From Thermocrinis jamiesonii (GTDB taxonomy: Bacteria > Aquificota > Aquificia > Aquificales > Aquificaceae): a stretch of DNA of 64,000 nucleotides. Below are positions 4,000-60,833 of this stretch, piece after piece. The notes under the pieces were generated by a model. It did not search any database and was not told where the DNA came from. It saw only the letters and a program-made list of their open reading frames with translations. How positions within the stretch are numbered: the first letter of the stretch is position 1; each line of letters begins with the position of its first letter. A program made the translations under genes and the position numbers. The stretch spans positions 62,650 through 126,649 of the forward strand of contig NZ_JNIE01000003.1 of assembly GCF_000702425.1 (NCBI RefSeq), given 5' to 3'.

Positions 4000-4450
4000 A
4001 CCTTATCCTCCCAAATCTATTTACTATTACTCTCCTAACACCATAGCCATTCTCAATGATAACACTGCCCATTCCCAAGAGACAGTTTTCATTCAAAGGA
4101 TAACCCCTCCTGTCAAAGACTACGTAGTAGCTGTTATTTACTTTTACACCTGGCGGAAGGCTTTTATCGATTATATTTATTGGTGATACGTCCCGACAGC
4201 CACTTTGAATGGAGAATATCCTGTATTGGCTTTGATTGGCAAAGAACCTTATTCCCCATGTTGCATTAGAAGACATAGACCTAAACTGAACCTCTTTTAG
4301 GTCATTGACTACTTGAGTAGTAGCTGAGTATAGCCTTTCCCTCAGAACCATGTTTCTTAGCCCCATAAAGGCCACACTACCTAAGATAGCAATTATCACA
4401 ATAACCACCAAAAGCTCAAATACGCTAAAACCTCTTACTTTTCTATCCAT
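3992..4450 (-). CDS. FimT/GspH-like pseudopilin
   Basis: Prepilin-like protein of 152 residues starting MDRKVRG^FSVFELLVVIVIIAIL, with Glu at mature position 5. The small domain that follows is typical of FimT/GspH minor pseudopilins. Its start lies inside the pilY1 3' end (16-bp overlap), so it is translated from the same mRNA. Likely a tip-priming minor pilin, possibly DNA-binding as known for FimT of competence pili. That second role is family knowledge, not visible here. Confidence 0.8.
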   Translation of the reverse strand: MDRKVRGFSVFELLVVIVIIAILGSVAFMGLRNMVLRERLYSATTQVVNDLKEVQFRSMSSNATWGIRFFANQSQYRIFSIQSGCRDVSPINIIDKSLPPGVKVNNSYYVVFDRRGYPLNENCLLGMGSVIIENGYGVRRVIVNRFGRIRYE

Positions 4451-7400
4451 AGCAAGAACCTTTCCCTAGATTCTATAGTAGGTTGCTGGCTAAATCTCAA
4501 AATTACACCCGTTCCTATTTGAACAAACTTCTCACTTCCCTCTTTAGTAGAAGATTGCAAAGCTTGGAATGGATTACCTAAAGGTGGCATACCAGAACTC
4601 ACCTGCATCTTTGATTTAATGCTTACAGTTTGACCTATGGCAATAGTGCCAATTACCGCTTCAGGAGAAAGCACAGAAGGTCTTGGATAAGGTCTGCCGG
4701 TCTTGTAATAAACCACAATCAAATTGGAAGAGCCACCAAACTCGCATATATCCTGAGGTGGCACAAAGGTTAGCGCATCCACTATGCCACCAAGCACTAA
4801 AGGTTGGGAATATATGCCTTCGTTGGTGAGCTCGTGATACCAACCTCTTACCGGTTCAGCGTGAGCAATGGTTGTAGTTGTGTTATAAACCACATCCCGC
4901 ATACCACACCCTGCACTATCACACATACACATCTGTTTTATTTCGGACACCACTACATCTGTAGTGCTATTAGTAACATTTTCCATGTCATTTTTGCGGT
5001 AAGTAACACAGGAGGAACCGTTCCAATTATCGTCCTTAAAACCTATGAAGTAATTTTTGTAAGGTATTGTTTTGTCATTTTGGCTCAAGTATCTTCCAGT
5101 TCCGAAAAAGACCCATAGCTTGTTGTTTTCATCCTTTGTAAAGTTTGCTGCACCAAAAACTGGGGGTGAGTGTCCAGCGGTTTTAAAGCTTTCAAGATCA
5201 ACTACGTTGCATATATCATTACTTCTTAGACTACTTACCGTTTTGTAGTTGTTTCCAGACCTGAGGCTAAGCCTGTAGAAGTTGCCCCAATATTTGCCAC
5301 TGTTGTCTTTACCGTAAGCTCCAAAGTAGATAACATCATCCTGATAGTCGCTATCCACATCTACTACCGTTATATCACCTACCGCAGCTGACACGTTGTT
5401 GGGAATTGGAATATCTATGGTTTTAACTATGTCGCCGGTTCTTAAGTTTATGAAATAAAGCTTGGGAGAATTTGTGAAGCTTTCTCCAGCTGGGTCCTTT
5501 GGACCTGAGCCTATTACCACATACCACTCACCGTTTTTATTTCTGTCTCCAAGACGAACTACAGCAGGATGGGACGTGGTGAGGGTTTTGTCAGGCAAAG
5601 AAACTTCCCACAGCAGTTGGGGATTACTCAAATTTGTAATATTAAGGGCAAACACGGAGGAAGAGTAATTGCCAAGCTCTTTACCACCAAACCCCATAGT
5701 TCCCACAAGAACTGTTCTCCAGCTATTTACATCCTTAGGCGAATTTTCAGGACCACCAATGGACGCATCAAAGACGTAAGTTCTATAATCTACAGTGGGA
5801 ACTCTGCAGTATTCAGGATGTCCTTGCCACACCAAGTAAGGAAGGGCATTTTTTGGAATAAAAGCCCATTCTTCCCTTCCTATTAGATCTGTTAAGTCGT
5901 TGTCAGGAGCATTGACTAATTTCACTGGCGTGTCTGGATCTCCAGTTTCCTTCACATACCCTACCCTAAAGGCATGAAGCATGCCATCGTTCGCACCAAC
6001 AAATAGAAGAGAAGGCCTGTTTTTGTATTGAGCGGTGCGTATGTAATCTAAATAGGTTCTGTCTCCATATCTTAGATGGTAGATGTTTAGAGGATCCGAG
6101 CCGGCTACAGATGGAGTGCTGGCGTATATGTCTCCTAGTTTCCACGTTGCATCACCCGAAGAGCTATAGCCTGGACAGATGCTTGAAAAGGTAGTTGTGT
6201 CAAACTCTCTGACCCTTCTAACGTAGCTCAAGCTCCCGCATGTTGTATCATTGCTCAAATTCTCGCCCCTTATGTATCTTATGATGCAGTCCGCTTTTGT
6301 CTGGTCAATGGTATTATCAACTGCTTGGAAGGCATCCCTTATGTCAGTTTCTCCAGTTTGGAAGGGGTGAAGAGTACCGTTTTTGTTGTATAAGATTATT
6401 CTATCCTGCTGTCTTGTGAGAGCAAGCTGGCAAGAACTTTCAAAGACAGGCCTAACTTGGTTAAAGTCTATAACACTCTCTCTGGTGCAAGAACTGGATA
6501 CATCCGATCCTTGAAGTATGGCGACTTTTGTTTCGTTGCTGGAAGCATCAAAAAAGAACTGAAATATTTTGTCAAAGACTACACCCACAAGGTTCAGGAT
6601 TTTGTCTGCCGTGGTATCCTCCCTTAAGTTTTGCTTTGTATCCACCCAAAAAGAGCGCAAAAAGCCTATCCAGGATATTTCCTTTCCGTCGGCGGTTGTG
6701 TATTTGGGATAGAAGTAGGGTTGGACTATTACAGAAGAAACCGAAGCTCTGGAGGTTAAAGTGGCAACGGTGGCACCAGCGGAAGCTTTGCGGAGGATGT
6801 CTGAAAAAACTTTTGTTAAAGATTCTTCCATTTTGATTGGATTAGCTACAAAGAAATAAGTATCAGGTACTTCGTCCCCGTCTTTATCCCATTCACTTTG
6901 TAAATCTGGAATACCATTTCCATTCATATCATCAAATCCACCCCACTTTGCGGCATACCATAGTGGGTCTTTGAGCTGTCCAGCAGTAGTTCCAGAAACC
7001 ATAAAGGTTCTACTCCAAGTTAAAGGCATGTTGGCAATGACGGAAGGTGTATCACCATCAGCGCTGTTAGGAACATCTCTGTCTTTCACAACAAGCCATT
7101 GTCCATCTTCCGTTGTCCCACTTATGAAGAACCCCAAGACTTGGTCAATACATCCAGCAGCATACTCAGAGGTTAATCTGACTTCAATTTGATTACTTCC
7201 GATTGGTCTGATTTCATACAAGACCACCGCATCCATGTCGTGGTCTGCGCCTTGTTCCACATCCTCAAAGTTTATCCTAAACTTAGCATAAGTTAAATTT
7301 CCGCTTGAATCGTAATCAACCTGTTCTACATAAAAATCAACTATTTGATTCGTAGGACAAAACGCATTTGAGCTGCATCCACTGATAGTTAAATTTCCAT

Positions 7401-9312
7401 GTCCATCCCTGCTTACAGTGCATTTTTGAAAGCAATTATTGTAGACACCTAAGCATCCACTTACACTTTTTGCAAGTGGAGCAATCCTTACCACTTTATC
7501 ACCCACCTTAATGGCTATATCTGGTATCGGAGATGATAAAACCACAGAGTAAGTTTTTAAGTTTGGTGGTTGTCGTCCAGAAAAGTTATCTCTAAATCTC
7601 GTGTTTGCATAGTAGGCTATACTGGCAGAATAGTAGCTTCCCTGTTTTGTAGGTTCCTCTGGACAAAGCCCTCTTATGTTAGAAAGACTGGATACAGACT
7701 TAGAAGAACATATGAAATCATAGAAAGAACCACTTTGCCCAATAAAGTAGTTGCCAGTTATTCCTTCAAAAGTGCTGATGGTGTTTGCAAGATTTGAAAC
7801 ATTTAATCCAACCAAGTCCCCACTTGAACCACCAAAAGCTGACCCAGGAAGCTTGTCTGAATCATAGCTTGGATAAGGATCACTGAAGACTATCATAAAC
7901 GGTTTTGAACATATCGGAAATAGTTCATAAGGCATGTAATATCTTGAACCACTTCTTATCCCCCAATCTGGTTTAGGCAAGTTCAGCCCGCTATCTTGAC
8001 TTCCAGAATAGGTAAAATCAGATGTTGGAGAGCTCTTACCTGCAAGGTATCTTACAGCTTCATACATCATCTCTGCAATAGGATTGCCCCACATTCTACA
8101 TTGTCCTTCTGATAATGGAGCGTTCGTAATCCAACCACAGGATCCTCCAGATGGATCTTGATAAGAGTAATCAGAATATCTAAAACCTACCACAGTCATC
8201 CTATCTAAGGTTAGAATTATGTTCCCAGGAACATTTTCTGAAGTTTGAAATATACCAGTATTTGGATTTAATTCATCCTGAATAGTCCAGATATTTTTTC
8301 TTAGAACTCCACCGCTTAGGTTCTTAGTGTAAGAACCTGTTAATAAACCAAAATACATTTTTGCCCTATCAATACAAAGACCCTCTGTGCTCGTATCACA
8401 ATCGCTATCTGTATTACAAGGTTTAAGAGATTTACTGCACCACTTTCCACCATCTTCGTATTCACCATATTTTTGAAGAAGCCCTATTGGCTTATATGTC
8501 CCACCTGGATATCTTTTACAATTCTCTTCAAGTCCAACAGAAGGATCGCAAACTTTGACCCTAATGTAATAGTCTTGTATATCATTTCTTGTCCCAACAG
8601 GACCTCTTCTCCATCTAGAAGGAGTTCCAGGTCCACTACATACCGCTCTCTCTGAAGAAGCCCACTCCCATATTCTATGTCCATCATTTAGAGCTACTCT
8701 TATTTTTCTCGTATCTCCCACTGAAGTGCTGGTAATACAAAAGAGATGTCGTCTCCCAGGAGAAGGTGGATCAAAAGGTGTTAACAATCTAGTATCTGAC
8801 CCTGCGTATTCTTTTCCCCAGCTATGGGCATCCTGAGGAATGTAAGTAGCTTCAAGGATTGTTTCGCTTGAACTATCAGTAGACCTATATCCACCATAAA
8901 GAACTTTTCTTAACACATCAATACGTGCCATAGTTAGCCAGTTCAAGAAGTTCCCACTCCATTCGTTAGCTCCACCGCAGTATTTGTTGTTTGTCCTTCT
9001 CGTTGGAACGAATTTTGCATTAGCTCCGCTTCCTTGATACCTATAGCATTTATAAGGATCAAAGTATCCGTAATAGTCTATGGAATGTTTGTATCCTACG
9101 TCCAACCTTCCATCTCCGTCAAGGTCCGAAGCGTCGTTATAGGCTTCATAATAAAGTTTGTGGTCCCTGCTCATTACAAGCATTACAATAGGAGGCACAG
9201 ATGTTCCTACGGTAGGAGGTATGTAGCAGTAATCAGACATACTTGCACTATAAGATTTTTGGGTGCTGAAAGATATCAATACCACCAGACAAAGGAGTAA
9301 AATCCTCCTCAT
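4435..9312 (-). CDS. pilY1: PilY1-type pilus tip adhesin
   Basis: Very large secreted protein (1625 residues) with a Sec signal peptide (MRRILLLCLVVLISFSTQKSYSA). The N-terminal part has the conserved PilY1 pattern YEAYNDASDLDGDGRLDVGY, then GNFLNWLTMARIDVLRKVLYGG. A calcium-type acidic loop (DMNGNGIPD) lies near residue 790. The C-terminal beta-propeller region contains DVDSDYQDDVIYFG near residue 1320, the calcium-binding loop that controls pilus extension and retraction in characterised PilY1 proteins. No von Willebrand MIDAS (DxSxS) is evident. It heads the minor-pilin operon. I count 18 N-x-S/T sequons. Shine-Dalgarno AGGAGG precedes the start. Confidence 0.92.
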   Translation of the reverse strand: MRRILLLCLVVLISFSTQKSYSASMSDYCYIPPTVGTSVPPIVMLVMSRDHKLYYEAYNDASDLDGDGRLDVGYKHSIDYYGYFDPYKCYRYQGSGANAKFVPTRRTNNKYCGGANEWSGNFLNWLTMARIDVLRKVLYGGYRSTDSSSETILEATYIPQDAHSWGKEYAGSDTRLLTPFDPPSPGRRHLFCITSTSVGDTRKIRVALNDGHRIWEWASSERAVCSGPGTPSRWRRGPVGTRNDIQDYYIRVKVCDPSVGLEENCKRYPGGTYKPIGLLQKYGEYEDGGKWCSKSLKPCNTDSDCDTSTEGLCIDRAKMYFGLLTGSYTKNLSGGVLRKNIWTIQDELNPNTGIFQTSENVPGNIILTLDRMTVVGFRYSDYSYQDPSGGSCGWITNAPLSEGQCRMWGNPIAEMMYEAVRYLAGKSSPTSDFTYSGSQDSGLNLPKPDWGIRSGSRYYMPYELFPICSKPFMIVFSDPYPSYDSDKLPGSAFGGSSGDLVGLNVSNLANTISTFEGITGNYFIGQSGSFYDFICSSKSVSSLSNIRGLCPEEPTKQGSYYSASIAYYANTRFRDNFSGRQPPNLKTYSVVLSSPIPDIAIKVGDKVVRIAPLAKSVSGCLGVYNNCFQKCTVSRDGHGNLTISGCSSNAFCPTNQIVDFYVEQVDYDSSGNLTYAKFRINFEDVEQGADHDMDAVVLYEIRPIGSNQIEVRLTSEYAAGCIDQVLGFFISGTTEDGQWLVVKDRDVPNSADGDTPSVIANMPLTWSRTFMVSGTTAGQLKDPLWYAAKWGGFDDMNGNGIPDLQSEWDKDGDEVPDTYFFVANPIKMEESLTKVFSDILRKASAGATVATLTSRASVSSVIVQPYFYPKYTTADGKEISWIGFLRSFWVDTKQNLREDTTADKILNLVGVVFDKIFQFFFDASSNETKVAILQGSDVSSSCTRESVIDFNQVRPVFESSCQLALTRQQDRIILYNKNGTLHPFQTGETDIRDAFQAVDNTIDQTKADCIIRYIRGENLSNDTTCGSLSYVRRVREFDTTTFSSICPGYSSSGDATWKLGDIYASTPSVAGSDPLNIYHLRYGDRTYLDYIRTAQYKNRPSLLFVGANDGMLHAFRVGYVKETGDPDTPVKLVNAPDNDLTDLIGREEWAFIPKNALPYLVWQGHPEYCRVPTVDYRTYVFDASIGGPENSPKDVNSWRTVLVGTMGFGGKELGNYSSSVFALNITNLSNPQLLWEVSLPDKTLTTSHPAVVRLGDRNKNGEWYVVIGSGPKDPAGESFTNSPKLYFINLRTGDIVKTIDIPIPNNVSAAVGDITVVDVDSDYQDDVIYFGAYGKDNSGKYWGNFYRLSLRSGNNYKTVSSLRSNDICNVVDLESFKTAGHSPPVFGAANFTKDENNKLWVFFGTGRYLSQNDKTIPYKNYFIGFKDDNWNGSSCVTYRKNDMENVTNSTTDVVVSEIKQMCMCDSAGCGMRDVVYNTTTTIAHAEPVRGWYHELTNEGIYSQPLVLGGIVDALTFVPPQDICEFGGSSNLIVVYYKTGRPYPRPSVLSPEAVIGTIAIGQTVSIKSKMQVSSGMPPLGNPFQALQSSTKEGSEKFVQIGTGVILRFSQQPTIESRERFLLWIEK

Positions 9313-9380: not shown

Positions 9381-9401
9381 GGAGAAAGGTTTTATTTCTC
9401 C
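9381..9401 (-). terminator. Hairpin at the end of array A
   Basis: Minus-strand stem GGAGAAA / TTTCTCC with a 7-nt loop that contains the TAA stop of the last array A gene. It has no U-tract, so it is either a weak terminator or an attenuator/processing site between array A and the pilY1 operon 70 bp downstream on the same strand. Confidence 0.4.
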
Positions 9402-9622
9402 CCTTTATGAGGAACCTCTAAAACTTTGTATAGAAGCATGCGGATCTCTGTAAATTCTTTCCTTATATCCTTTATATCTCTTTTTATTTCTCTAACATCT
9501 TCTTCGAGCTTGTCTATTTGCCTGTTGGTGTCATCAATACGTTTGTTTAAAAGGAAAGCATATCCCGTGGTAATTCCCGCCACGCTTGCTATGATCGTTA
9601 GCGTCTGTATCCAATACATCAC
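9392..9622 (-). CDS. Array A, copy 3: small TM plus coiled-coil protein
   Basis: Predicted 75-76 residues, start GTG at 9622 or ATG at 9619. N-terminal hydrophobic segment after a W-x-Q-x-LTII start, then NKRIDD, a charged heptad-rich coiled coil, and the family tail EIRMLLYKVLEVPHK. Function unknown. It is a diverged copy: its coil lacks the RMDRLE repeats of copy 2, and its last residues (HKGEK) no longer encode an ideal AAGGAGGA, consistent with it being the last gene. It overlaps copy 2 by a few bases. Lys/Arg follow the membrane segment, suggesting a cytoplasmic C-terminus by the positive-inside rule. Confidence 0.75.
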   Translation of the reverse strand: MMYWIQTLTIIASVAGITTGYAFLLNKRIDDTNRQIDKLEEDVREIKRDIKDIRKEFTEIRMLLYKVLEVPHKGEK

Positions 9623-9861
9623 TTTTCCTCTTTGTGGGGAACCTCTAAAACCTTATACAAAAGCATACGGATCTCTTTTAGCTCATCTTCAAGTTTGTCC
9701 ATCCTCTGCTCCAACCTATCCATTCTATGCTCCAGCCTATCCATTCTTCTATTCAAGTCCTCCCTTAGGTCATCTATTCGCTTGTTCAAAAGAAAGGCAT
9801 AGCCTGTCAAAATTCCAGCCATACTTGCTATTATCGTCAGCGTTTGTGTCCAGTCCATCAT
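9619..9861 (-). CDS. Array A, copy 2: small TM plus coiled-coil protein
   Basis: 80 residues. Same plan as its neighbours: membrane segment (about residues 6-25), NKRIDDLRED, then three consecutive heptads of RMDRLEx/RMDKLED type, then the tail ELKEIRMLLYKVLEVPHKEEK. The start overlaps the stop of copy 1 (ATGA); a second Met follows directly. The Shine-Dalgarno AAGGAGGA is formed by the last codons of copy 1. Function not recognised. The repeat of whole genes and of internal heptads points to recent tandem duplication. Confidence 0.78.
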   Translation of the reverse strand: MMDWTQTLTIIASMAGILTGYAFLLNKRIDDLREDLNRRMDRLEHRMDRLEQRMDKLEDELKEIRMLLYKVLEVPHKEEK

Positions 9862-10076
9862 TTTTCCTCCTTATGAGGAACCTCTAAAACCTTATACAAA
9901 AGCATGCGTATCTCTTTTAGCTCATCTTCAAGCCTGTCCATTCTTCTGTTTAAGTCCTCCCTTAGGTCGTCTATTCGCCTGTTGGTGTCATCAATGCGTT
10001 TGTTTAAAAGGAAAGCGTATCCTGTGATAATTCCAGCTATACTCGCTATGATCGTTAGCGTTTGTGTCCAATCCAT
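9858..10076 (-). CDS. Array A, copy 1: small TM plus coiled-coil protein
   Basis: 72 residues, first gene of array A. Starts MDWTQTLTIIAS, hydrophobic through residue 24, then NKRIDDTNRRIDDL, a short coil, and the conserved tail LLYKVLEVPHKEEK. Its HKEE codons (CAT AAG GAG GAA) serve as the ribosome-binding site of copy 2. It is divergent from rnr, with 71 bp between. The tail and N-terminal W-x-Q-x-LTI signature are shared with the four genes at 58561-59556, so both loci hold one family. No known family recognised. Confidence 0.78.
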   Translation of the reverse strand: MDWTQTLTIIASIAGIITGYAFLLNKRIDDTNRRIDDLREDLNRRMDRLEDELKEIRMLLYKVLEVPHKEEK

Positions 10077-57631: not shown

Positions 57632-58513
57632 TCATATAACTCCCAGTGTTTCTGCCACTGTTTTACCTATAAACGCTGGGTTTTCTATAACATATACACC
57701 AGCATCTTTTAATGCAGACATCTTTGCCTGAGCTGTTCCCTTTCCTCCGGTGATTATTGCTCCTGCGTGTCCCATCCTTCTGCCCGGAGGTGCGGTTATA
57801 CCCGCTATGTATGCAAAGACAGGTTTTTTGACGTTTTCCTTTATGTATTCTGCCGCTTCCTCTTCTGCAGTTCCTCCGATCTCTCCAATCATAAGTATGG
57901 CTTGAGTTTCTGGGTCCTGATTGAACATAGCTATAACGTCTTTGTGGGATAGTCCATGCACTGGGTCTCCTCCTATGCCTACTGCGGTGGATTGTCCAAG
58001 TCCGTAGCGCGTAAGCTGATAGGACGCTTCATAAGTTAGGGTGCCACTTCTGGAAACAATCCCAATGTTTCCTCTCTTGAAAATATGCCCTGGCATTATA
58101 CCTACTTTTGCCTCTCCGGGGGTGATAACTCCAGGACAGTTGGGACCTATGAGCTTTGCGTTGGGATAGTTTCTGATCATGTAGTGTTTTACCTTCAGCA
58201 TATCCCTTACTGGGATACCTTCTGTGATGCAGACTATAAGCTCTATGCCCGCATCTAAGGCTTCCACTATGGCATCCGCCGCAAAGGCAGGTGGGACGAA
58301 TATAAGAGAGCAGTTAGCTCCTGTTTCTTTAACCGCTTCTTCTACAGTATTGAAAACTGGTATATCCTCTACAGTTTGCCCACCCTTTCCGGGAGTAACT
58401 CCAGCAACAACCTGCGTGCCATAGGCTTTACACTGCAAAGCATGAAAGGACCCTTCCTTTCCAGTAATACCCTGAACCACAACCTTGGTATCCTTCCCCA
58501 CAAGTATTGCCAT
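57632..58513 (-). CDS. sucD: Succinyl-CoA synthetase alpha subunit
   Basis: 293 residues. N-terminal CoA-binding Rossmann domain ([14 protein letters not shown]), [21 protein letters not shown], and the phospho-His loop [11 protein letters not shown]. Length matches SucD rather than the longer citryl-CoA synthetase subunit of Hydrogenobacter. Makes succinyl-CoA in the reductive TCA cycle if present (inference). The beta subunit gene is not in this window. Confidence 0.93.
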
Positions 58514-58560
58514 ACCAACCCCCCATAAAAGAGTGTAAAAGATTATAGCACAAGTAATCC

Positions 58561-58809
58561 TTATTCTTGCTTATGTGAAACTTCTAAGAATTTGTAGAGC
58601 AAAAACTTAATTTCCTTAAACCCTTCTTCCATTCTCCTCTCTACGGAGTCTATTCTTCTGTTGATGTCTTCAAACCTTCTGTTTATGTACTCAAACCTTT
58701 TACTTATGTCCTCAAATCTTTTGTTGATGAGGGAGACTGCTAAGGTGATAACTGCAGTTATGATGGAAGAAGTTCCCACGATGATTGTCAGAACTTGTTC
58801 CCAGCCCAT
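58561..58809 (-). CDS. Array B, copy 4: TM plus coiled-coil protein, three heptads
   Basis: 82 residues, last gene of array B and the most diverged. Same membrane segment ([27 protein letters not shown]), then [20 protein letters not shown], i.e. three 7-residue units, then [31 protein letters not shown]. Its tail codons have lost the AAGGAGGA found in copies 1-3, fitting a gene with nothing behind it. Function unknown. 47 bp upstream of sucD on the same strand. Confidence 0.75.
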
Positions 58810-59121
58810 TTATTCCTCCTTGTGTGGAACTTCCAAGACCTTATAAAGCAAAAACTTTATTTCTTTCAGCTCCGTTTCCATACGCCTTTCCAAAGAGTCT
58901 ATCCTCCTGTTTATGTCTTCAAACCTCCTGTTCATGTCTTCAAATCTCCTGTTCATGTCTTCAAACCTTTTGCTAATATCTTCAAATCTTTTGTTTATGT
59001 CCTCAAACCTTCTGTTTATGTCCTCAAATCTTTTGTTAATGAGGGAAACCGTCAAGGTAATAACTGCAGTTATGATGGAAGAGGTTCCCACGATGATTGT
59101 CAAAACCTGCTCCCAACCCAT
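58810..59121 (-). CDS. Array B, copy 3: TM plus coiled-coil protein, six heptads
   Basis: 103 residues, the longest copy. After the membrane segment come six consecutive RFED(I/M)(N/S)(K/R)-type heptads, then [31 protein letters not shown]. It directly abuts its neighbours (TAA then ATG, no spacer), and its ribosome site AAGGAGGA lies in the last codons of copy 2. The coil is 35 residues longer than in copy 1, five heptads exactly. Confidence 0.78.
   Translation of the reverse strand: MGWEQVLTIIVGTSSIITAVITLTVSLINKRFEDINRRFEDINKRFEDISKRFEDMNRRFEDMNRRFEDINRRIDSLERRMETELKEIKFLLYKVLEVPHKEE
58900..59037 (-). repeat. 21-bp tandem repeat in copy 3 of array B
   Basis: Six-fold 21-bp unit, on the plus strand like AAACCTCCTGTTCATGTCTT-C, with exact boundaries at 58921, 58942, 58963, 58984 and 59005. 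Each unit encodes one coiled-coil heptad. Imperfect between units (mostly third-base and I/M, N/S, K/R changes). Confidence 0.85.
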
Positions 59122-59349
59122 TTATTCCTCCTTGTGTGGGACTTCCAAGACCTTATAAAGCAAAAACTTTATCTCTTTCAGTTCGGACTCCATGCGCCTC
59201 TCCAAAGAGTCTATCCTCCTGTTCATGTCCTCAAATCTTTTGTTCATGTCTTCAAACCTTTTGTTGATGAGGGAGACTGCCAACGTAATTATTGCAGCTA
59301 CGATGGAAGAAGTTCCCACGATGATTGTCAAAACCTGTTCCCAACCCAT
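59122..59349 (-). CDS. Array B, copy 2: TM plus coiled-coil protein, two heptads
   Basis: 75 residues: membrane segment to residue 28, two KRFEDMN-type heptads, then [31 protein letters not shown]. Abuts copies 1 and 3 with no spacer. Apart from heptad number it is almost identical to copy 1. Confidence 0.78.
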   Translation of the reverse strand: MGWEQVLTIIVGTSSIVAAIITLAVSLINKRFEDMNKRFEDMNRRIDSLERRMESELKEIKFLLYKVLEVPHKEE

Positions 59350-59556
59350 TTACTCCTCCTTGTGCGGAACTTCCAAGACCTTATAAAGCAAAAACTTTAT
59401 CTCTTTCAGTTCGGACTCCATACGCCTTTCCAAAGAGTCTATCCTTCTGTTTATGTCCTCAAACCTTTTGTTGATGAGGGAAACCGCTAAGGTGATAACT
59501 GCAGCTACGATGGAAGAAGTTCCCACGACGATTGTCAAAACCTGTTCCCAATTCAT
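59350..59556 (-). CDS. Array B, copy 1: TM plus coiled-coil protein, one heptad
   Basis: 68 residues, first and shortest copy: MNWEQVLTIVVGTSSIVAAVIT membrane segment, one KRFEDIN heptad, [31 protein letters not shown]. No Shine-Dalgarno of the usual spacing precedes its ATG, unlike the later copies. The porin terminator lies 45 bp upstream, so it needs its own promoter or read-through. Confidence 0.75.
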   Translation of the reverse strand: MNWEQVLTIVVGTSSIVAAVITLAVSLINKRFEDINRRIDSLERRMESELKEIKFLLYKVLEVPHKEE

Positions 59557-59600
59557 AGAATACTATTTTATGCCTCTTGAGAAATTTAGAGTTTCAAAAT

Positions 59601-59624
59601 AAAAAAACCCCGCACAAGGCGGGG
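59601..59624 (-). terminator. Intrinsic terminator of the porin gene
   Basis: On the minus strand CCCCGC, five-base loop, GCGGGG, then seven T. Perfect 6-bp GC stem, 25 bp after the porin stop codon. Confidence 0.92.
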
Positions 59625-59648
59625 CTGGAGTAAAGGAGCTTTTAAGAG

Positions 59649-60833
59649 TTAGAATTGAACTTGGAATTGAAGAGTCACGTCGGTGAAGTTTTTGCCACCA
59701 CCAGAAACGTTTGCTTTTGCAGCACTGTTGAGATTCACGCTATCAACACCAAGAGACACCTTTGCCGCTTGTCCTTTGATGTAGTAATGAGCCCACACGC
59801 CTACCCTTGTATTTTTGGGGTCAGTGCCAGATGCTTTTCTCTTGTTTTGCTCAAACTTTACAGCGAGGGCTGGTTTTCCAAAACCTACCACTTGGTCGTA
59901 AAGCAGTTGTCCTTGGGCATAGATGTGTGAAAGGTCTAAATCTGATGTACCATTCGCATCTTTAACACTTATATATCCCACTTGCAAGTTGGGCACTATA
60001 TCTCCAAACTTTTGCTCGTATAGTGCATCTACTGTCCACATCTTTGTGTCTCTTCCATTCCTACCCACTACCCTATAACCTGCACCAATTGACAACACAT
60101 TTTGCTTTCCAAGGTAGGTATCGCTTACGGTGTATCCAGTTTCAGGCTTAAAGCCAAGCATGGTGGGAGTAAATTGAAGCCTTAAAGTGTATGCCAGGCT
60201 GTCGTCTGTAGAGCTACCTATGGTGGCACCATCGGTTACAGCTAAGTAATACTTGAGCATTCCTTCTGCTACGTTACCCCAAACGACCACACCAGCGTCT
60301 CTGGGGCTGACATCAATATTTGTCTGCACATTTAGAGGATTAACACCAGGACCAAGCCCTTGACCTGCATACGAAGTAGGAACCAACAGAGCATATGTGC
60401 TGGTTAGCGATGCTCTGGAGAATGGCACCCTTTGCAATCCTGCTTGAACTCTAAGCTCGTCTGCAAACTTCAAGCCTATAAAGGCGTCCCTTACCCTAAC
60501 ACCAAAGGGTTCTGAAGTTCTTTCTGTACACTTTGGTTCACCATCTTCAATCTCATCACAATATTTGTCCTTTATCGCTCTTGTTCCTTCCAAGTTCATA
60601 CCGAAATACACCAGCTTATTCACTTGCCCACTGGCGGTAATGTTGAATAGTTGCACTTTGAAGTTAGCCCTGCTTTTTTCGTTTGTTTTCCTCTTCCCCT
60701 CATAGGTTCCACGGATCATGGTGGAGAAGCCGATGTTGGCAAAGGTTTGTTCATCTACCTTTACCCTCCAGGCGTGGGCTGGCAATGTGGCAACCCCCAT
60801 AAGTGCTGCCATAGCTAATAGGCTTTTCCTCAT
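59649..60833 (-). CDS. Outer-membrane porin
   Basis: 394 residues from the ATG at 60833 (AAAGGAGGG upstream). Signal peptide MRKSLLAMAALMGVATLPAHA, then alternating beta strands through to a C-terminal VTLQFQVQF ending in Phe, the outer-membrane assembly signal. Gly/Tyr-rich loops and one Cys pair (CDEIEDGEPKC) in an early loop. Similar in style to the phosphate-selective porin O/P or major porins of Aquificae; selectivity unknown. Strong promoter and terminator suggest high expression. Confidence 0.85.
   Translation of the reverse strand: MRKSLLAMAALMGVATLPAHAWRVKVDEQTFANIGFSTMIRGTYEGKRKTNEKSRANFKVQLFNITASGQVNKLVYFGMNLEGTRAIKDKYCDEIEDGEPKCTERTSEPFGVRVRDAFIGLKFADELRVQAGLQRVPFSRASLTSTYALLVPTSYAGQGLGPGVNPLNVQTNIDVSPRDAGVVVWGNVAEGMLKYYLAVTDGATIGSSTDDSLAYTLRLQFTPTMLGFKPETGYTVSDTYLGKQNVLSIGAGYRVVGRNGRDTKMWTVDALYEQKFGDIVPNLQVGYISVKDANGTSDLDLSHIYAQGQLLYDQVVGFGKPALAVKFEQNKRKASGTDPKNTRVGVWAHYYIKGQAAKVSLGVDSVNLNSAAKANVSGGGKNFTDVTLQFQVQF

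What the first reader, a model, noticed from the sequence alone, without database searches (positions are those of the whole stretch)
58561..59556. Four tandem genes whose lengths differ by exact heptads (array B)
Four abutting genes encode 68, 75, 103 and 82 residues. They share a membrane segment and tail and differ mainly in the count of a 7-residue RFED(I/M)(N/S)(K/R) unit: 1, 2, 6 and 3. Each unit is 21 bp. Gaining or losing whole heptads keeps both reading frame and coiled-coil register, so slippage can change rod length without breaking the protein. This looks like an in-genome series of rulers or mixed-length oligomers at the membrane. No known family was recognised.
Basis: partly seen in the sequence, partly recalled or inferred. 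Interest (0 to 1): 0.85.

Follow-up and report, generated by a model that had tools for sequence, protein, structure and literature searches.

The report
Membrane coiled-coil genes with countable heptads
A heat-loving bacterial family (Aquificaceae) carries rows of tiny membrane-anchored rod proteins. Related species have gained or lost exact 7-residue units in them, and the end of each gene often doubles as the translation start signal of the next; what the rods do is still unknown.

Summary
Four directly abutting minus-strand genes (68, 75, 103, 82 aa) share an N-terminal membrane helix and a tail. Their rods hold 1, 2, 6 and 3 RFED-type heptads, each 21 bp. Array A in the same window (9392-10076) belongs to the same family. 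No Pfam or NCBIfam model reaches its cut-off for the window proteins. Convincing homologues were found only in Aquificaceae, patchily, as 1-6 gene clusters. Synonymous change exceeds non-synonymous, so these are real proteins under purifying selection. Orthologues 92-96% identical in DNA differ by single clean 21-bp indels in three comparisons, and a fourth differs by 63 bp; other orthologues keep their count. Unit gain/loss is therefore real but slow. Across the family, rods also step by 4 or 11 residues, not only by 7. The tail codons (CAC AAG GAG GAG) hold a Shine-Dalgarno sequence for the next gene, lost in the last copy of array B. Clusters lie beside type IV pilus genes more often than expected (post hoc lead). 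The ruler idea is weakened, because length sets differ between genomes. Most likely: inner-membrane, cytoplasm-facing coiled-coil adaptors with tolerated rod length and one docking tail. Function not shown.

The parts
59350..59556 (-). B1, first gene of the array, 68 aa; TM helix, 1 RFED heptad, conserved tail
59122..59349 (-). B2, 75 aa; 2 RFED heptads
58810..59121 (-). B3, 103 aa; 6 RFED heptads; AlphaFold2 gives one continuous helix, residues 3-97, rod pLDDT above 90
58561..58809 (-). B4, last gene, 82 aa; 3 RFED-type heptads; diverged tail SHKQE without the AGGAGG motif
59350..59364 (-). tail codons of B1 (CAC AAG GAG GAG TAA) containing AAGGAGG, placed as the Shine-Dalgarno sequence for B2
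   Evidence: sequence and scan
59122..59136 (-). tail codons of B2 (CAC AAG GAG GAA TAA) containing AAGGAGG, placed as the Shine-Dalgarno sequence for B3
58810..58824 (-). tail codons of B3 (CAC AAG GAG GAA TAA) containing AAGGAGG, placed as the Shine-Dalgarno sequence for B4
59606..59626 (-). terminator-like hairpin between the upstream porin gene and B1, so the array probably starts its own transcript
   Evidence: one found, about one expected by chance in the region
9392..10076 (-). array A: three more genes of the same family (72, 80, 76 aa; 9858-10076, 9619-9861, 9392-9622), overlapping by 4 nt, 80 bp upstream of a pilY1-like gene on the same strand

Best explanation
Array B is one cluster of a multigene family found, in these searches, only in Aquificaceae. 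Each protein is a single-pass inner-membrane protein with a few N-terminal residues outside and a cytoplasmic parallel coiled coil (a = Phe/Ile, d = Ile/Met/Leu) that ends in a conserved amphipathic tail (EIR-x-LLYKVLEVPHKE). The rod is a flexible-length spacer: whole 21-bp units are gained or lost by slipped pairing or unequal recombination, because only changes that keep frame and helix face survive. The tail is the constant working end and most likely docks one common cytoplasmic or membrane partner. Clusters grow by tandem gene duplication. Because the tail codons also supply the Shine-Dalgarno sequence for the next ATG, a duplicated copy is placed in a translationally coupled operon. Paralogues of different length probably co-assemble. 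Shown: architecture, homology, purifying selection, unit indels, clusters and SD motifs. Inferred: topology, oligomerisation, docking role, co-assembly.
For: Common architecture and tail in a 32-member alignment: invariant K30 and E52, near-invariant L, Y, K, P. AlphaFold2 gives one helix, rod pLDDT above 90. Clean a/d hydrophobic positions; K/R more frequent on the C-terminal side of the TM in 65 of 67 proteins, the two exceptions being fragments without a TM. dN/dS 0.01-0.22 between orthologues or paralogues outside the window, and B1-B3 tails differ by 6-7 synonymous but 0-1 non-synonymous changes. Single 21-bp indels between orthologues 96.0, 92.5 and 92.7% identical, and 63 bp in a fourth pair. 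60 distinct rods: mod-7 classes 1, 4, 5 hold 56 of 60, none in 0 or 3. GGAGG before the next ATG in 15 of 18 internal copies against 3 of 13 terminal or solitary copies with the same tail type, Fisher p = 0.001. A nearly identical copy pair in G023 (2 differences in 267 bp) shows recent duplication or conversion.
Against: No binding partner or phenotype is known, and genomic neighbours are mostly unrelated housekeeping genes. Many family members are solitary, so co-assembly of paralogues cannot be essential everywhere. Members of an array are not independent, which weakens the SD and mod-7 statistics. The family is absent from several genus mates, so it is dispensable.
Confidence: 0.5

Rival explanations
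1. The proteins are accessory parts of the type IV pilus machine: the membrane helix sits in the inner-membrane platform and the cytoplasmic rod and tail hold or space a pilus motor or platform protein.
For: In 12 genomes, 5 of 25 family clusters lie within 1.5 kb of a pilin gene (expected 0.24). Counting orthologous loci once leaves 3, P about 0.002 at 1.5 kb. Array A is 80 bp upstream of pilY1 on the same strand. L058 and L120 follow the pilQ-like gene by about 16 bp, with pilins downstream. In L118, L119 and L072 pilins follow on the same strand within 20-90 bp; in L138 the neighbour is T2SSF/PilC.
Against: About 20 of 25 clusters, including array B, are not beside pilus genes. The test was chosen after seeing the neighbours. 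Whether pilus-bearing genomes without the family exist was not tested.
Confidence: 0.2
2. A length ruler: the in-genome series sets defined distances from the membrane for a partner.
For: Four rods differing by 1, 2 and 5 heptads in one array; rigid continuous helix predicted.
Against: Length sets differ between genomes and orthologues change length; no partner of graded length seen.
Confidence: 0.07
3. Descendants of a phage membrane coiled-coil protein (spanin- or holin-associated type) that was domesticated and amplified.
For: 29 of 32 members weakly match phrog_1009 (best 1e-9) and 25 match an Rz-like spanin family (best 6.5e-7); in the members examined one by one the phrog_1009 match usually runs collinear from the membrane helix through the rod.
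Against: Coiled coils give many such matches to unrelated families; the tail is not matched; no hit in 50,697 phage records or IMG/VR; clusters sit among housekeeping genes; predicted topology is opposite to Rz.
Confidence: 0.1
4. Largely selfish or neutral amplification: the unit breeds tandem copies because each carries its own start signal, with little benefit to the cell.
For: Patchy presence, variable copy number, some copies with in-frame stops.
Against: Strong purifying selection on orthologues, dN/dS down to 0.01 at dS near 2.
Confidence: 0.13

Closest known systems
Borrelia Bdr proteins (KID-repeat family)
   Same: Multigene family of small inner-membrane proteins with repeat tracts whose count differs between otherwise near-identical orthologues (bdrT about 9 against 6 repeats, PMC3303823; inner membrane, KID repeats, PMC4370689); function unknown in both.
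   Different: Bdr carry KID/KIE repeats, are on plasmids/prophages, and (from memory) are anchored by a C-terminal helix. The present family has an N-terminal helix, RFED/RIDD heptads and a constant C-terminal tail, in short gene arrays on chromosomal contigs.
phrog_1009 and Rz-like spanin (phrog_739) phage families
   Same: N-terminal membrane helix followed by a coiled coil; weak matches, usually collinear.
   Different: No conserved EIRxLLYKVLEVPHKE tail matched; no homologue found in phage records by sequence.
CCDC90/MCUR1-like proteins (PF07798)
   Same: Membrane-anchored coiled coils with heptad/hendecad repeats (from memory).
   Different: C-terminal anchor (from memory); among the members scanned only the long member L062 reached E <= 0.01, below the cut-off.
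Phage-shock protein PspB and ZapG/YhcB (from memory)
   Same: Small N-terminal TM plus cytoplasmic coiled coil.
   Different: No PspB model among the matches listed; ZapG-like only at 0.009, below cut-off.

Membership tests
Borrelia Bdr | KID/KIE tripeptide repeats | tested here: not met
   Units are RFED(I/M)(N/S)(K/R) and RI(D/E)DTN(K/R)
Borrelia Bdr | C-terminal membrane anchor | tested here: not met
   The hydrophobic segment is N-terminal in 65 of 67 members (the other two are fragments); tail is polar at its end
Borrelia Bdr | repeat number varies between orthologues | tested here: met
   21-bp indels; Bdr case in PMC3303823
Rz-like spanin (phrog_739) | profile match covering the protein | tested here: inconclusive
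   25 of 32 match at E <= 0.01, best 6.5e-7, TM and rod only, among 137 families matched
Rz-like spanin (phrog_739) | lysis-cassette context / phage origin | tested here: not met
   Neighbours are housekeeping or pilus genes; no phage record hit
CCDC90-like PF07798 | match above gathering score | tested here: not met
   Only L062, 23.1 bits against 33.5
Any Pfam or NCBIfam family | match above curated cut-off | tested here: not met
   None above cut-off for the window proteins; the long relative L062 passes NPV_P10 by 0.9 bit (30.7 against 29.8), taken as coiled-coil noise
Type IV pilus component | consistent genetic linkage to pilus genes | tested here: inconclusive
   Enriched but a minority of clusters

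The most novel reading that the evidence does not exclude
A previously undescribed Aquificaceae-specific membrane adaptor family in which heptad-sized DNA repeats tune rod length without breaking the protein and the protein tail's own codons serve as the ribosome-binding site of the next copy, so that tandem duplication makes a self-propagating operon of different-length subunits acting on one partner, possibly the type IV pilus platform.
Probability: 0.3. Interest if true: 0.65.

Novelty: new variant of a known kind. Interest (0 to 1): 0.48.

Why it matters
It is a clean natural series of coiled coils that differ by counted heptads, with orthologues caught between counts, in a family where frame, helix register and (in many arrays) the next gene's start signal are all encoded in the same few bases. 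That makes the tolerance of rod length and the origin of tandem gene arrays directly testable. It also points to an unannotated membrane family in a deep-branching thermophile lineage, with a lead to type IV pili.

Tried and rejected
PADLOC matches (LmuB, Leo, Zorya and others) are scattered coiled-coil matches and were rejected. The PDB profile search gave nothing. Phage and viral-contig searches were empty; plasmid hits cover part of the query and are low-identity coiled coils, including three in Borrelia plasmids. The Thermodesulfatator hit L057 has RFEDMNK units but its membrane segment at the C-terminal end, and none of the family tail, so it was not counted. Fold search was not run because a single helix matches everything. 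Literature searches found no description of the family in the open library.

Full report
OBSERVATION. Each TAA stop is followed directly by the next ATG. Read in frame from the K of LINKR, the rods consist of 21-bp units. RFED-type units number 1, 2, 6 and 3, followed in all by a common RRIDS(L/V)E heptad, a further RRME... heptad and the tail. The TRF result agrees. The units are similar but mostly not identical at DNA level; the closest pair, B2.1 and B3.4, is identical and lies in different genes, which is compatible with exchange between paralogues.

WHAT IT IS. Array A at 9392-10076 is the same family. Searches of relatives and of 136 Aquificota genomes give convincing full-length matches only within the window's own family, called Aquificaceae here from the named relatives (Aquificaceae and Thermocrinis MAGs). 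The matches are patchy, and within the genus three of six mates lack the family. Clusters hold one to six genes. Alignment shows an N-terminal membrane helix, a rod of very variable length (15 to 155 residues between the anchors; the 15 is from a contig-end fragment) and a constant tail, consensus EIRxLLYKVLEVPHKE. Pfam, NCBIfam, PADLOC and PDB show only sub-threshold or generic coiled-coil matches. One exception, the long relative L062, passes the NPV_P10 cut-off by 0.9 bit, which I take as coiled-coil noise. AlphaFold2 of B3 with 13 sequences gives one helix from residue 3 to 97, mean pLDDT 84, rod above 90; a single-helix monomer model says nothing about oligomer state. In the rod of B3 the a positions are F F F F F F I M I V and the d positions I I I M M I L E L V. 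Lysine and arginine lie mainly after the membrane helix in all full-length members, so by the positive-inside rule the rod should be cytoplasmic (inference).

SELECTION. Orthologous and paralogous pairs outside the window give dN/dS 0.014 to 0.22, and B1-B3 tails differ by 6-7 synonymous and 0-1 non-synonymous changes. These are real, constrained proteins.

UNIT GAIN AND LOSS. In syntenic orthologues the alignments show one clean 21-bp indel each: L069/L070 second copy (96.0% identical otherwise), L125/L133 (92.5%), L066/L064 (92.7%); L063/L118 second copy differs by 63 bp (gaps of 42 and 21, 86.4%). Unchanged counts: L059/L061 both copies, L069/L070 first copy, L133/L134, L063/L118 last copy (dS 1.8). 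L068/L073 differ by 3 residues and have a replaced rod. So of ten comparisons about half keep the count, four change by whole heptads and one differs otherwise. Array B itself has no close orthologue: genus mates carry other genes upstream of sucD, and the nearest candidate is the single 90-aa gene L065 in G002, two genes from a glycosyltransferase about 46% identical to the one near array B.

LENGTH STEPS. Over 60 distinct rods, length from the K of NKR to the E of EIR modulo 7 is 1 (28), 4 (18), 5 (10), 2 (2), 6 (2), never 0 or 3 (the uniform null is rejected, but related sequences are not independent). This fits steps of 7 combined with 4 or 11 residues, which keep a coiled-coil face. Exact heptads are a property of array B, not a rule of the family.

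TAIL AS START SIGNAL. In B1-B3 the codons for HKEE read CAC AAG GAG GAG/GAA TAA and are followed directly by ATG, which places AAGGAGG a few bases before the next start codon. B4, with no family gene after it, reads CAT AAG CAA GAA TAA. Over all arrays GGAGG occurs in 15 of 18 internal abutting copies and 3 of 13 terminal or solitary copies with this tail type, Fisher p = 0.001; for AGGAGG 12 of 18 against 3 of 13, p = 0.03 (copies within an array are related, so these overstate the evidence, and I classed the copies by eye). I take this as translational coupling. It may also explain part of the tail conservation in arrays, but not in solitary members, where the protein motif is kept with other codons.

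CONTEXT. Neighbours are diverse: sucD and porin for array B, pilY1 and rnr for array A, carA/cstA, transaldolase, RND pump, nuo genes and others. Type IV pilus genes recur. With pilin positions, 5 of 25 clusters lie within 1.5 kb of a pilin (expected 0.24); collapsing orthologous sites leaves three, P about 0.002. Array A precedes pilY1 by 80 bp, the L058/L120 site follows the pilQ-like gene by about 16 bp, and L138 adjoins pilC. The test was framed after seeing the contexts, so it is a lead.

FUNCTION. I commit to a membrane-anchored cytoplasmic coiled-coil adaptor with tolerated rod length and a constant docking tail, probability about 0.5 as a description of how it works. The pilus platform is the best single candidate partner (about 0.2). 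The ruler idea is weakened because length sets are not conserved between genomes and orthologues change length. Phage ancestry is possible: in several members the phrog_1009 match runs from the membrane helix through the rod. But coiled coils inflate such matches, and no phage record was hit.

KNOWN KINDS. The nearest parallel is the Borrelia Bdr family: small inner-membrane proteins with repeat counts that differ between orthologues (PMC3303823, PMC4370689). Defining features of Bdr (KID repeats and, from memory, a C-terminal anchor) are not met, so it works like Bdr in its repeat evolution but is not a member.

Noticed in passing
window 9392-10076: Array A: three genes of the same family overlapping by 4 nt, rods 29, 36 and 32 residues, 80 bp upstream of a pilY1-like gene (4435-9312).
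   Followed up: yes
window 58513-59649: Synteny break: in five of six genus mates the gene upstream of sucD is a divergent bc1-type (Rieske) gene, in G003 another gene; the window genome has array B, a porin and a glycosyltransferase there.
   Followed up: partly
L074:2693-3190 (own genome, C4): A 165-aa protein with heptad repeats and a C-terminal membrane helix, Bdr/CCDC90-like in layout, in the same genome but a different architecture.
   Followed up: partly
L058:5311-6769: Six-gene array after a pilQ-like gene; copies 2 and 4 differ by 2 of 267 bases, and the pattern of lengths suggests duplication of a two-gene block.
   Followed up: partly
L060:3664-4167 and L062:2564-3160: Very long members (167 and 198 aa) that keep the membrane helix and tail.
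   Followed up: no
L057:2944-3249 (Thermodesulfatator MAG): RFEDMNK heptads in a protein with its hydrophobic segment at the C-terminal end; possible convergence or exchange of the repeat.
   Followed up: no
G076:C8:7376-7588 and G076:C4:96891-97106: Family matches with an in-frame TGA, probably decaying copies.
   Followed up: no
L072:4125-4277 and L127:4377-4529: Members that lack most of the membrane helix in the called ORF; L127 ends near a contig end, L072 may use another start.
   Followed up: no
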